Shown one piece after another: positions 21,385 through 24,461 of a stretch of 64,000 bases of DNA (the stretch's first letter is position 1; each line of letters opens with the position of its first letter). The notes under the pieces were generated by a model. The model searched no databases, was not told the origin of the DNA, and saw only the letters and a program-made list of their open reading frames with translations. This DNA comes from [Synechococcus] sp. NIES-970. GTDB taxonomy: Bacteria > Cyanobacteriota > Cyanobacteriia > Cyanobacteriales > MRBY01. The DNA is taken from positions 1,240,001 to 1,304,000 of the forward strand of contig AP017959.1 of assembly GCA_002356215.1 (NCBI GenBank), in the 5' to 3' direction. Made by a program: the position numbers and the translations under genes.

Positions 21385-23003
21385 TGATCCCGGAGGTTGA
21401 TAATCTCTTGGTTTAAGGCTTGGATGTAAGGCCGGGCCGTTTCTTCGGTGATCAGTCCTTTGAGGATTGCCCCATTGATCGCACTTTTTTCAGCGAGAAA
21501 AAGACGCAGGCGCACCCCATTGAGATAGGCTTGATTCTCAAATTGGCTTAACCTTTGGCTCAGGCGCTGGTTGTAGAGCCCCCGCAGCTCCTCCTCGGCA
21601 TTGGCAATGCGGGCCTGGTAAGTGGCAAACAGTTCCTCATAGAGAAATTTTGGGAGGCTGCCGCTCTGTAATAACTCCTTGAGTTCCTCCTGGGCCGATT
21701 TTGCGGCAATCAAGTTCAATTGCAGGGTTTCTAAGCGTTGGCGCACAGGAGAAGGCTTTGCCAGCTGGAGTTTTTTCACGCACCAAGGCAGACTTAGCCC
21801 TTGGCCAATTAGAGACACCAAAACGGTACTAAACACCAGAGTGACCACCTGCGATCGCCCGGCGAGGGTCAAGGGTAAACCAAGGGCGAGGGCCATAGAT
21901 AGAGAGCCTTTCACATTCCCGAGAATCAACACATGTTGCCAACGAAGCGGCAGGGGGCGGTCAAAAAACTTCAGCCCCCAGAGCAGCGGATAAATCGAAA
22001 AAATTCGCCCCGTTTGGTAGGCCAAAATCGCCAACAGCGCTGCTGGAATACTCTGCAGAAGGGCCTGGGGTTCCACTTCGATGCCCACGAATAGGAAAAT
22101 AAATGTATTGACCCCAAAACCCGCATATTCCCAAAAATTTAACAGAGTAATCGTCATGGAGCCAGAGCTTTCCCGCAGGGCAACATTACCAATTAGCAGC
22201 CCCGCAATCAGCACGGCGATCGCACTGGAAACCCCGAGCAATTGCCCAATTTGGAATGTGCCAAGGGACACTGCCACAGTCAACAAAATATTACTAAGGG
22301 GATCATCCAACTGCCGGAACAGGCCAATACAGAGATAGCCTAAACCCAAGCCCAACAGACCGCCCCCCACAAAGGCAATCAGGATTTGTTCAATGCCTTG
22401 GCCAACGCTAAAAGAACCCTGTAGGTGGATCGTCGTAACAACATTCAGCAAAACCAGGGCAATCCCGTCATTAAATAAACTTTCTCCTTCCACAATGGTG
22501 GCCAAGCGTCCCGGCACTGGCACCGTCCGAAAAGCCGCAATGACAGAAACTGTATCAGTGATCGTCAAAATGACTCCCACAGCACAGGCCGTTAACCAAG
22601 CCAGATCTAAACTAACCTTGAGCAAATAGGCGGTGATCGTGGCAGCCAAGAGAACCCCTGGCCCCGCTAAAAGAGTAATCGGTTTAATGGTGCTGCGTAA
22701 CCGACTGATATCTGTATTGATCGCGGCCTCAAAGATCAAAATCGGCAGAAATAAATTCAAAATCACATCAGGATTTAAACCAATGGCCTCTGCTAGTAGC
22801 TGTCTGGGAATTAACAAACCCGCGAGCACAAGCCCAATCACATAGGGAATCCTCAGCCAGCGAGTCACCAGAGCTACCACCGTCGCGACTAGCAGTAACA
22901 AAATCAAGGTATCGACCAGTCCCGTAAAAGCATTATTCGGCAGAGAAACCGCTTGTCCGAACAGGAAGCTATGGCGCACAATAATCAGGTGGGGATCAAG
23001 CAC
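21381..23003 (-). CDS. CPA1-type Na+/H+ antiporter (NhaP/NhaS-like)
   Basis: A 540-residue membrane protein with about 12 hydrophobic segments in residues 30-410 and a charged cytosolic tail of about 130 residues. The ion-binding region appears as ILTITDTVSVIAAFR near residue 150 and the paired helix as EGESLFNDGIALVL near residue 180, typical of NhaP-type exchangers. It would expel Na+ in exchange for protons, which fits a salt-tolerant organism. The start is a GTG. Cyanobacteria have several NhaS genes; I cannot assign the number. The TnpB element begins about 60 bases upstream. Confidence 0.9.
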   Translation of the reverse strand: MLDPHLIIVRHSFLFGQAVSLPNNAFTGLVDTLILLLLVATVVALVTRWLRIPYVIGLVLAGLLIPRQLLAEAIGLNPDVILNLFLPILIFEAAINTDISRLRSTIKPITLLAGPGVLLAATITAYLLKVSLDLAWLTACAVGVILTITDTVSVIAAFRTVPVPGRLATIVEGESLFNDGIALVLLNVVTTIHLQGSFSVGQGIEQILIAFVGGGLLGLGLGYLCIGLFRQLDDPLSNILLTVAVSLGTFQIGQLLGVSSAIAVLIAGLLIGNVALRESSGSMTITLLNFWEYAGFGVNTFIFLFVGIEVEPQALLQSIPAALLAILAYQTGRIFSIYPLLWGLKFFDRPLPLRWQHVLILGNVKGSLSMALALGLPLTLAGRSQVVTLVFSTVLVSLIGQGLSLPWCVKKLQLAKPSPVRQRLETLQLNLIAAKSAQEELKELLQSGSLPKFLYEELFATYQARIANAEEELRGLYNQRLSQRLSQFENQAYLNGVRLRLFLAEKSAINGAILKGLITEETARPYIQALNQEIINLRDH

Positions 23004-23096
23004 AGTGAGAGATATCCTTAGGGATAAAAAGACCGCAATATAGTCATCAAAAATCTCCGAGAGATCCTGTCTTAAAATGACAGGGAGTAATACGAG

Positions 23097-23132
23097 TGTC
23101 AGTCAATCCGTTCGATGCTGCGAAGACTGACA
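23097..23132 (+). repeat. Left-end subterminal hairpin of the TnpB element
   Basis: TGTCAGTC (23097-23104) and GACTGACA (23125-23132) pair over eight bases; TTCG and CGAA inside add four more pairs after a six-base bulge. IS605-family ends are recognised as such imperfect single-stranded hairpins. Confidence 0.7.
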
Positions 23133-23175
23133 AATAATCTATATTGCTCACAGAATCAAGCATTATAATGTGAGT

Positions 23176-24348
23176 ATGACACAACGTGCTTTTAAGTATC
23201 GCTTCTATCCTACCCCTGAACAGGAATCCCTGTTGAGACGGACGATGGGCTGTACTCGTTTGGTCTACAATCGCGCCCTTGCCGTGAGAACCCAGGCTTG
23301 GTCCGAAGAGAAAAAACAAGTTGGCTACAGCGATACTTCGGCAATGCTGACGGCTTGGAAAAAGCAAGATGACCTCCAATTTTTGAATGAGGTGAGCTGT
23401 GTCCCCTTGCAACAGGGATTGAGACATCTTCAGAAAGCATTCCGTAACTTTTTTCAAGGACGGGCCAAATACCCAACCTTCAAGAAAAAACGGAACGGTG
23501 GCAGTGCAGAGTTTACGAAATCTGCGTTCAAGTGGAGGGATGGGCAAGTTTTTCTGGCCAAGTGTTCTGAGCCACTGGCCATCCGTTGGAGCCGAGCATT
23601 ACCCAAGGGCGCAAATCCCTCGACAATTACCGTGAAGCTTTCGCCGGCTGGAAGATGGACAATCTCTCTGTTGGTGGATGTTGATGTCGACCCATTGCCG
23701 CCATCCCCAAATCAAATTGGCATTGATTTGGGCGTGACCAGTTTGGCGGCCCTGAGCAATGGAGATAAGATTGCGAATCCCAAAAACTTCAATACTAAAC
23801 GCCGCAAACTGAAGAAAGCTCAGAAGGCATTGGCACGAAAGCAGAAAGGGTCGAACAATCGCCACAAGGCTCGTTTAAAAGTGGCTAAGGTGCATCAGGA
23901 AATCGCTGATGCCAGAAAGGATTTTCTTCACAAGCTGACGACTCGATGGGTACGCGAAAACCAAACGATCGCCGTTGAGGACTTGGTGGTGAAGAACATG
24001 GTAAAGAACCAAAAACTGGCGCTCTCGATTAGTGATGCGAGTTGGGGCGAGCTGGTCAGACAACTTGAGTACAAGTGCGACTGGTATGGCCGCAGGTTGA
24101 TCAAGATTGACCGCTGGTTTCCGAGTTCTAGGCGGTGTGGTAGTTGTGGTCACATTATTGAAAAACTGCCGTTAAATGTCCGTGCATGGGATTGCCTCAA
24201 CTGTGGGGCACACCATGACCGGGATATCAACGCTGCCAAAAACATTCTTGCCGCAGGGCTTGCGGTGAAAGTCTGTGGAGCAAACGTAAGACCAGAAAGG
24301 CATAAATCTGATGGCAGTTGCAATGAAACAGAAAGGTCTAGGAAGTGA
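23176..24348 (+). CDS. tnpB: RNA-guided endonuclease TnpB (IS605 OrfB)
   Basis: A 390-residue TnpB. The N-terminal helix-turn-helix-like region starts MTQRAFKYRFYPTPEQESLL. The RuvC triad looks intact: Asp in IGIDLGVTSLA (near residue 185), Glu in VEDLVVKNM (near 268) and Asp in HHDRDINAAKN (near 350). A zinc ribbon is formed by CGSCG and CLNCG. TnpB proteins are ancestors of Cas12 and cut DNA guided by an RNA made from the element's right end, which helps the element persist. A TATAAT box at 23164-23169 lies seven bases before the ATG, so the mRNA may lack a leader; a GTG at 23170 is the alternative start. No frame damage is seen. Confidence 0.93.
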   Translation: MTQRAFKYRFYPTPEQESLLRRTMGCTRLVYNRALAVRTQAWSEEKKQVGYSDTSAMLTAWKKQDDLQFLNEVSCVPLQQGLRHLQKAFRNFFQGRAKYPTFKKKRNGGSAEFTKSAFKWRDGQVFLAKCSEPLAIRWSRALPKGANPSTITVKLSPAGRWTISLLVDVDVDPLPPSPNQIGIDLGVTSLAALSNGDKIANPKNFNTKRRKLKKAQKALARKQKGSNNRHKARLKVAKVHQEIADARKDFLHKLTTRWVRENQTIAVEDLVVKNMVKNQKLALSISDASWGELVRQLEYKCDWYGRRLIKIDRWFPSSRRCGSCGHIIEKLPLNVRAWDCLNCGAHHDRDINAAKNILAAGLAVKVCGANVRPERHKSDGSCNETERSRK

Positions 24349-24406
24349 TTCTTAGACTCCCTGTACCTTTTAGGTCGGGAAGGATGTCAACCTAAGGGAA
24401 TCGAAC
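24250..24406 (+). ncRNA. Predicted reRNA/omegaRNA of the TnpB element
   Basis: In characterised TnpB systems the guide RNA overlaps the 3' end of tnpB, spans the right-end hairpin and ends with about 16 bases of flanking host DNA as guide. By that rule the scaffold here would end at TCAA (24387-24390) and the guide would begin CCTAAGGGAATCG. The boundaries are inferred from the family, not seen as a promoter. Confidence 0.35.
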
Positions 24407-24461
24407 GGAAAGATCGGCAGGATTGGATAGATTGAAAGCAGGTGCGAGAAAAGAAAATCGA

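What the first reader, a model, noticed from the sequence alone, without database searches (positions are those of the whole stretch)
23066..24390. Intact solo TnpB element with readable ends and a predictable guide
The RuvC triad, zinc ribbon and both end structures look intact while tnpA is absent, so this may be an active RNA-guided nuclease that can move only with help in trans. The predicted guide is the host DNA just after TCAA at 24390, starting CCTAAGGGAATCG. Eight bases near the left end are the exact complement of eight at the right end.
Basis: partly seen in the sequence, partly recalled or inferred. Interest (0 to 1): 0.6.

Follow-up and report, generated by a model that had tools for sequence, protein, structure and literature searches.

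The report
Ordinary solo TnpB insertion sequence
A small jumping gene in a cyanobacterium carries a complete RNA-guided DNA-cutting enzyme but no transposase of its own; it is an ordinary member of a known family, and relatives suggest that such elements can move with borrowed help.

Summary
Real but ordinary. Window 23176-24348 (+) encodes a complete ISDra2-type TnpB; RuvC and zinc-ribbon residues align with ISDra2 TnpB. In relatives the left edge follows T[C/T]AT(C) (25 of 30 loci by eye) and the right end is TCAA (49 of 50). The guide start at 24391 is as predicted. The two congeners in which both flanks were found lack the element. New here: two helices of the predicted guide RNA covary (40 distinct sequences); the only Y1 transposase match in the host is broken; none was found beside 49 relatives; one relative's genome has three solo copies, identical over 1333 bases, at different sites, plus a tnpA-bearing element sharing 22 bases of left-end hairpin. 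So solo elements probably moved in trans there. The 8-base complement is real (9 bases) but not seen in relatives. 'Both ends intact' is too strong: both guide tetranucleotides differ from those of relatives and the right hairpin has a mismatch at its foot. New member of a known kind (IS1341-type).

The parts
23044..23048 (+). TCAT(C): flanking target motif, predicted TAM. The last C is either its fifth base or the first base of the element.
   Evidence: T[C/T]ATC precedes the left end in 25 of 30 aligned loci (strand corrections, by eye); TCATG in two copies (L152, L153) and TCATA in L074 and L158 suggest that the fifth base belongs to the element.
23048..24390 (+). the whole element, 1343 bp (1342 if it begins at 23049)
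   Evidence: alignment of ends with relatives; flanks run on without an insert in G002 and PCC 7117
23061..23064 (+). left guide tetranucleotide, GAGA here, GAAA in L051 and L052
   Evidence: the role of a tetranucleotide 5' of the hairpin foot is as described in PMC6006769 (passages)
23066..23084 (+). left-end hairpin CCTGTC-TTAAAAT-GACAGG (plus a T.G pair at its foot, 23065/23085)
   Evidence: hairpins follow T[C/T]ATC in relatives
23164..23169 (+). TATAAT box six bases before the tnpB start codon (could give a leaderless mRNA)
   Evidence: sequence; a loose rule for such a box fits 36 of 50 loci (no control run)
23176..24348 (+). tnpB, 390 aa
   Evidence: PF01385, PF07282, PF12323; NF040570 above its cut-off; ISDra2 TnpB E 7e-79
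24329..24390 (+). 3' part of the predicted omega (guide-scaffold) RNA: helix 1, drawn by eye as 24336-24344/24349-24357 with the tnpB stop codon in its loop, and helix 2 = right hairpin
   Evidence: covariation of the 14 pairs predicted by RNAalifold: 96.4% of cells paired, 32 further pair types, 11 pairs changed on both sides; 1000 shuffles mean 77.4%, 23.9, 7.0, maxima 81.1%, 29, 11
24355..24358 (+). right guide tetranucleotide, GACT here, GAAT in 45 of 50 loci
   Evidence: the search rule admitted four tetranucleotides, so the count is among those
24359..24380 (+). right-end hairpin, with a C.A mismatch at the foot and a T.G pair
24387..24390 (+). TCAA, right cleavage site and last bases of the element
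   Evidence: TCAA in 49 of 50 loci, TCAC in L051 (the rule fixed GTCA and left the last base free)
24391..24406 (+). predicted guide (host DNA), CCTAAGGGAATCGAAC
   Evidence: position follows from the family ends; no other place in the genome with fewer than two mismatches

Best explanation
This is an IS1341-type (solo tnpB) member of the IS200/IS605 family that inserted after TCAT in the short gap between two divergent genes (an antiporter-like gene and a ketoacyl-synthase-like gene; my reading of the translations). TnpB would be made together with a guide RNA formed by the 3' end of its own transcript plus the first 16 or so host bases after TCAA. That complex would cut chromosome copies carrying the joined empty site (TCAT followed by CCTAAGGG...), so that repair from a copy with the element puts the element back. 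Excision and insertion need a Y1 transposase from another element. Shown: anatomy, ends, covariation of the RNA helices, lack of the element in two congeners, no intact tnpA found in this genome, solo copies at new sites in a relative. Inferred: expression, cutting, and mobility of this copy. The confidence is for what kind of element it is and how it would work; it overlaps with the first rival, which concerns whether this copy still works.
For: Protein families; alignment to ISDra2 TnpB with catalytic residues kept. Ends shared with relatives: TCAA in 49 of 50 loci, T[C/T]ATC on the left in 25 of 30. RNA helices covary over 40 distinct right ends. Both flanks uninterrupted in G002 and G003/PCC 7117. 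dN 0.079 and dS 0.80 to the nearest relative. No Y1 transposase found beside 49 relatives. G049: three copies with 0 differences over 1333 aligned bases at different sites, and a tnpA-tnpB element with the same left hairpin over 22 bases and a GAATC...GTCAA right end. Precedent: ISDra2 TnpB needs its TAM and a matching guide, and was proposed to cut the donor joint (PMC8612924, passages).
Against: No RNA data. Both guide tetranucleotides differ from those usual in the family and the right hairpin has a mismatch at its foot, so this copy may be stranded even with a helper. The host's only Y1 match is broken, and this copy shares only 6 bases in a row of left end with the three tnpA-bearing elements compared. 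The sites without the element have diverged so much that the aligner did not place the junction cleanly; the edges rest on the family alignment. Folding the window's RNA end alone is no better than chance (z -1.4, 18 of 200 shuffles as good). Rfam gave only one sub-threshold match.
Confidence: 0.85

Rival explanations
1. A decayed remnant: the element has no transposase to use and its ends are no longer recognised; TnpB is still open only because the loss of function is recent, and it does nothing now.
For: Guide tetranucleotides differ from those usual in the family on both sides and the right hairpin has a mismatch; single copy; no intact tnpA found in the genome.
Against: The frame is complete and catalytic residues are kept; of the 14 predicted RNA pairs this copy breaks only the C.A at the foot of the right hairpin; change is mostly synonymous relative to L051; no tnpA was found beside the 49 relatives either, so its absence is usual in this group.
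Confidence: 0.25
2. A domesticated TnpB: retained by the host for its own use (for example defence or gene regulation), no longer a mobile element.
For: Conserved nuclease with no transposase nearby.
Against: Absent from the two congeners that have the uninterrupted site; best relative is in another family of the order at 85% protein identity, whereas congeners' TnpBs reach 43% over any match longer than 100 residues, as expected for a mobile element; upstream flanks of relatives do not align outside the element. Regulators derived from TnpB lack the RuvC residues (recalled, not checked here).
Confidence: 0.05
3. The 9-base complement between left and right ends is a functional pairing, for example joining the ends in a single-stranded loop.
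For: 9 exact bases; only 17 of 2000 shuffles of the window's ends reach 9 or more.
Against: The 18 other elements with both ends found have 4-7, and 17 of 342 combinations of ends from different elements also reach 9. Both left arms contain CCTGT, so the right arm of the left hairpin is bound to complement part of the left arm of the right hairpin.
Confidence: 0.04

Closest known systems
IS1341 group of the IS200/IS605 family (solo tnpB between LE and RE)
   Same: Only tnpB, hairpins near both ends, 1.34 kb against 1252-1393 bp for 10 of 18 IS1341 elements in PMC9956272 (passages)
   Different: Nothing found that sets it apart as a kind; host and target motif TYAT(C) are particulars of this cyanobacterial group
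ISDra2 of Deinococcus radiodurans and its TnpB (PDB 8bf8, 8h1j)
   Same: TnpB homologous along residues 3-363 with catalytic and zinc residues aligned; guide RNA from the right end, target beside the TAM (PMC8612924, passages)
   Different: ISDra2 has tnpA; its TAM is TTGAT, here TCAT(C) is predicted; the two right-end RNAs were not compared here
tnpA-tnpB (IS605-type) elements of other cyanobacteria, L187 (G060) and L188 (G049)
   Same: TTATC before the left end, hairpins of the same kind, GAATC guide...GTCAA right end
   Different: They carry tnpA divergent to their own tnpB; the window's left end shares only 6 bases in a row with them

Membership tests
TnpB RNA-guided nuclease | TnpB family profile above curated cut-off | tested here: met
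   NF040570 378 bits against cut-off 100; PF01385, PF07282, PF12323 above cut-off. The narrower NF038281 falls below its cut-off (395 against 425).
TnpB RNA-guided nuclease | RuvC D-E-D and zinc-ribbon cysteines | tested here: met
   D184, E268, D350; C321, C324, C340, C343 aligned with ISDra2
TnpB RNA-guided nuclease | guide RNA from the right end, overlapping the gene's 3' end | tested here: inconclusive
   two covarying helices, but no RNA data, no significant fold of the single sequence and no Rfam match above threshold
TnpB RNA-guided nuclease | TAM-dependent cutting of DNA | not testable with these tools
   needs biochemistry
IS200/IS605 family ends | subterminal hairpins with guide tetranucleotides, flanking left target motif, right cleavage site at the end, no target duplication | tested here: met
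   TCAT is not repeated after 24390; each guide differs by one base from that usual in relatives
IS1341 group | tnpB only, no tnpA or trace of it in the element | tested here: met
   no TnpA by tblastn in the 64-kb window; genome-wide only a broken Y1 fragment on contig C2
IS605 / ISDra2-like autonomous element | Y1 transposase in the element | tested here: not met

The most novel reading that the evidence does not exclude
With no transposase known in the cell, the TnpB acts purely as a homing or retention device: it removes empty alleles among the several chromosome copies that cyanobacteria carry (recalled), so selection keeps the nuclease and its RNA while the transposase-recognised guides in the DNA ends drift. 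The changed guide bases at both ends beside largely preserved RNA pairing are what this would predict.
Probability: 0.12. Interest if true: 0.5.

Novelty: new member of a known kind. Interest (0 to 1): 0.22.

Why it matters
By itself little: related TnpBs are very common in this order (294 of 388 sampled genomes have a match at E 1e-60, solo or not). The useful side result bears on a question that PMC9956272 calls unclear, whether IS1341 elements are autonomous or decayed copies (that paper leans to independent evolution; passages): in G049 a solo element exists in three copies, identical over 1333 bases, with different flanks, and a tnpA-bearing element elsewhere in that chromosome has the same left hairpin over 22 bases. 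This gives a definite pair with which mobilisation in trans can be tested. The predicted TAM and guide also make a simple cutting assay possible.

Tried and rejected
Rfam: one match far below its family's threshold. Plasmid and phage collections: 45 plasmid and 5 phage records match, none over 80% of the query; the best plasmid rows have 68% identity over 76-78% and 74.5% over 67% of it; no near copy. IMG/VR: 22 loci, best 66% protein identity; not pursued. Second guide targets in the genome: 24 places at up to 3 mismatches, the element's own included, against 28 for the reversed control pattern; only the element's own has fewer than 2; of 7 others read (of 23), none is preceded by TYAT. Two broken TnpB pieces elsewhere in the genome (C2:121874-121963, C1:477783-477854) were glanced at as possible guide-RNA-only remnants; I saw no GTCAA end of this family and dropped them without a systematic test. 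The other tnpA loci fetched (L179, L182, L183, L185, L186) were glanced at and show no AAACCCCG left hairpin beside tnpA that I noticed; not tested further. A structure prediction was not run, because sequence homology to solved TnpBs is strong.

Against the matched-helper reading: in G060 the tnpA-bearing element L187 shares only 10 bases in a row with that genome's own solo copies L152 and L153, but 29 with L079 and 26 with L059, L060 and L156 of other genomes; in G227, L189 shares 11 with that genome's L077 and L161; and the fourth G049 copy, L151, shares 8 with L188. So ends are shared between tnpA-bearing and solo elements in general, and a same-genome match stands out only for L148-L150.

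My own error: three of the 29 relatives (L052, L054, L070) were read on the wrong strand; one search raised the suspicion (23% identity of L054), one search found and fixed it, repeats the end counts on all 50 loci. The complement statistics and the per-pair counts (19 elements and 36 sequences) were not repeated. In one search one of the 28 left ends picked by the rule (L061) is a wrong pick by eye; 25 of 28 have [G/A]AAAC before the stem, by eye. The same rule fires on 20 of 1000 shuffled upstream regions.

Full report
Where it is. The window is part of a 2.84-Mb contig of a 3.12-Mb cyanobacterial genome in 5 contigs. One of the other members of its genus held here, G003, has a contig of the same length as the chromosome of Picosynechococcus sp. 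PCC 7117, and the same region of that record was found by name, so the host is taken to be a Picosynechococcus.

What is there. A 390-residue TnpB, 23176-24348 on the + strand, matches OrfB_IS605, the zinc-ribbon TNB domain and the N-terminal HTH of Pfam and the guided_TnpB model of NCBIfam. It aligns to ISDra2 TnpB (8bf8, E 7e-79) from residue 3 to 363, and D184, E268, D350 and the four cysteines 321, 324, 340, 343 stand at ISDra2 D191, E278, D361 and 331, 334, 351, 354 (ISDra2 numbers counted by me on the printed alignment; window motif positions).

Relatives. A search of 388 genomes of the order found 294 with a match at E 1e-60. The nearest is L051 in G064, another family, with 85% protein identity and 81% nucleotide identity over the element (1072 of 1320 aligned columns). 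TnpBs in other members of the genus reach 43% over any match longer than 100 residues; 3 of the 5 others have a match. This points to horizontal arrival. dN is 0.079 and dS 0.80 between the window's gene and L051, so change between them has been mostly synonymous.

Ends. I took the 29 relatives whose loci came and 20 further loci, 50 with the window. In the alignment of upstream regions of the first 30, T[C/T]ATC stands immediately before the left end in 25, counted by eye after correcting the strand of three; L053, L054, L064, L068 and L074 do not show it (L064 stops at a contig end). All 50 have the right-end pattern, with TCAA in 49 and TCAC in L051. The rule itself asked for CAGAAA, one of four guide tetranucleotides and GTCA plus any base, so only the last base of that count is free. 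The left rule (T[C/T]ATC 11-32 bases before a hairpin) fires in 28 of 50 loci and in 20 of 1000 shuffled regions. The element's edges are therefore about 23048 and 24390. Whether the C at 23048 belongs to the element is open: two copies with TCATG (L152, L153) and two relatives with TCATA (L074, L158) suggest that it does.

Empty site. In G002 and G003 (PCC 7117) the left flank matches up to window 23007 and 23030 and the right flank from 24462 on, 113 and 90 bases apart. Of 5 other genomes of the genus these are the two with both flanks; in G001, G004 and G005 only the right gene matches. The gap itself has diverged, and the aligner did not place the junction cleanly. By eye, ACATCCTACGG of PCC 7117 lies against TCAT joined to CCTAAGG without a gap (sequences). 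TCAT is not repeated after 24390, so there is no target duplication.

Guide RNA. The stretch from CAGAAA (24329) to TCAA was aligned for 40 distinct sequences. Two predicted helices, 14 pairs, have 96.4% of cells paired, 32 further pair types and 11 pairs changed on both sides; 1000 shuffles of the 3' letters give means of 77.4%, 23.9 and 7.0 and maxima of 81.1%, 29 and 11. The first two measures exceed every shuffle; the third equals the best one. Shuffles ignore relatedness, so these are not probabilities, and the structure was predicted from the same alignment. The second helix is also the DNA hairpin of the right end, so its covariation may serve the DNA, the RNA or both. Helix 1 has the tnpB stop codon in its loop. 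Folding the window's sequence alone does not show the structure beyond chance (z -1.4, 18 of 200), and the same holds for the right end as DNA; the left end is clear.

How intact are the ends? A tetranucleotide just 5' of each hairpin foot guides TnpA cleavage in this family (PMC6006769, passages). On the right it is GAAT in 45 of 50 loci, and GACT in the window and L060 (labelled AGAC there; letters). On the left, [G/A]AAAC precedes the stem in 25 of the 28 left ends picked, by eye; the window has GAGAT. The window also has C.A where 34 of 36 have C-G at the foot of the right hairpin. The cleavage motifs TCAT and TCAA are as in relatives. I conclude that the structures are largely kept and the recognition letters are slightly off; whether a TnpA accepts them is unknown.

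Transposase. A genome-wide Y1_Tnp search finds one match in the host, 73 of 121 positions with three stops, on contig C2. Using two Y1 TnpAs (46% identical to each other) as tblastn queries at E 1e-3, 0 of 49 relatives show tnpA within the flanks held (1-1.5 kb; shorter on one side in L053, L063, L064 and L070), while L048 and L040, from which the queries came, find each other. A more distant TnpA could be missed. Solo thus seems the usual state here.

Help in trans. In G049 the copies L148, L149 and L150 differ by 0 of 1333 bases, apart from three bases at the left edge of L148, and have different flanks on both sides. G049 also has an open tnpA-tnpB pair (L188) whose left end starts TTATC and shares AAACCCCGTTGCTTCAGCACGG, 22 bases, with these copies; the longest match of L188 with a solo copy of another genome is 18 bases, and with the fourth G049 copy, L151, 8. 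Its right end is GAATC...GTATGTCAA. L187 in G060 has the same arrangement, but shares only 10 bases with G060's own two solo copies (identical to each other over 1137 bases) against 29 with L079 of another genome; L189 in G227 shares 11 with that genome's L077 and L161. So tnpA-bearing and solo elements share ends in general, and one genome gives good circumstantial evidence that solo elements moved with the transposase of such an element. The window's own left end shares only 6 bases in a row with these three.

The complement. ACAGGGAGT and ACTCCCTGT, 9 bases. In 18 other elements the longest is 4 to 7; with ends of different elements combined, 17 of 342 combinations give 9 and 3 give 8. Both left arms contain CCTGT, so part of the complement follows from the two hairpins having like stems. 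I see no function.

Literature. A search for Picosynechococcus with TnpB gave no paper in the held library; TnpB with cyanobacteria, transposase and guide RNA gave 13; IS605 with cyanobacteria and others 46, 20 listed; two further TnpB searches listed, and 19, 10 listed. I saw no description of this element in those listings, which cover open-licence papers only and were not read in full. TnpB as a retention and gene-drive device is in print (PMC11870625, abstract; PMC8612924, passages), so the mechanism proposed is known.

Verdict. A new member of a known kind.

Noticed in passing
L148, L149, L150 (G049), left and right junctions: L149's right flank begins CATAATTCTC, the same ten bases as the start of the element in L149 and L150 (CATAATTCTCC), while L148 has CGGGATTCTCC. 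The element in L149 may have picked up three target bases at its left edge and L150 may descend from it, which would show the order of two moves.
   Followed up: partly
window 23164-23175: TATAAT lies six bases before the tnpB start codon; a loose rule for such a box fits 36 of 50 loci, so the mRNA may be leaderless.
   Followed up: partly
window 23003-23048 and 24390-24438: The insertion splits a short gap between two divergently read genes; tnpB reads toward the ketoacyl-synthase-like gene, so it may change the expression of both.
   Followed up: no
L177 (G000:C2:121874-121963) and L178 (G000:C1:477783-477854): Two fragments of other TnpB genes, both C-terminal zinc-ribbon pieces only.
   Followed up: partly
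L016 (G000:C2:103947-104165): Broken Y1 transposase fragment with three stops, the only Y1 match in the genome.
   Followed up: partly
G002: A congener has 19 TnpB matches of several kinds against 2 in the window's genome (one of them a 38-residue fragment), a large difference within one genus.
   Followed up: no
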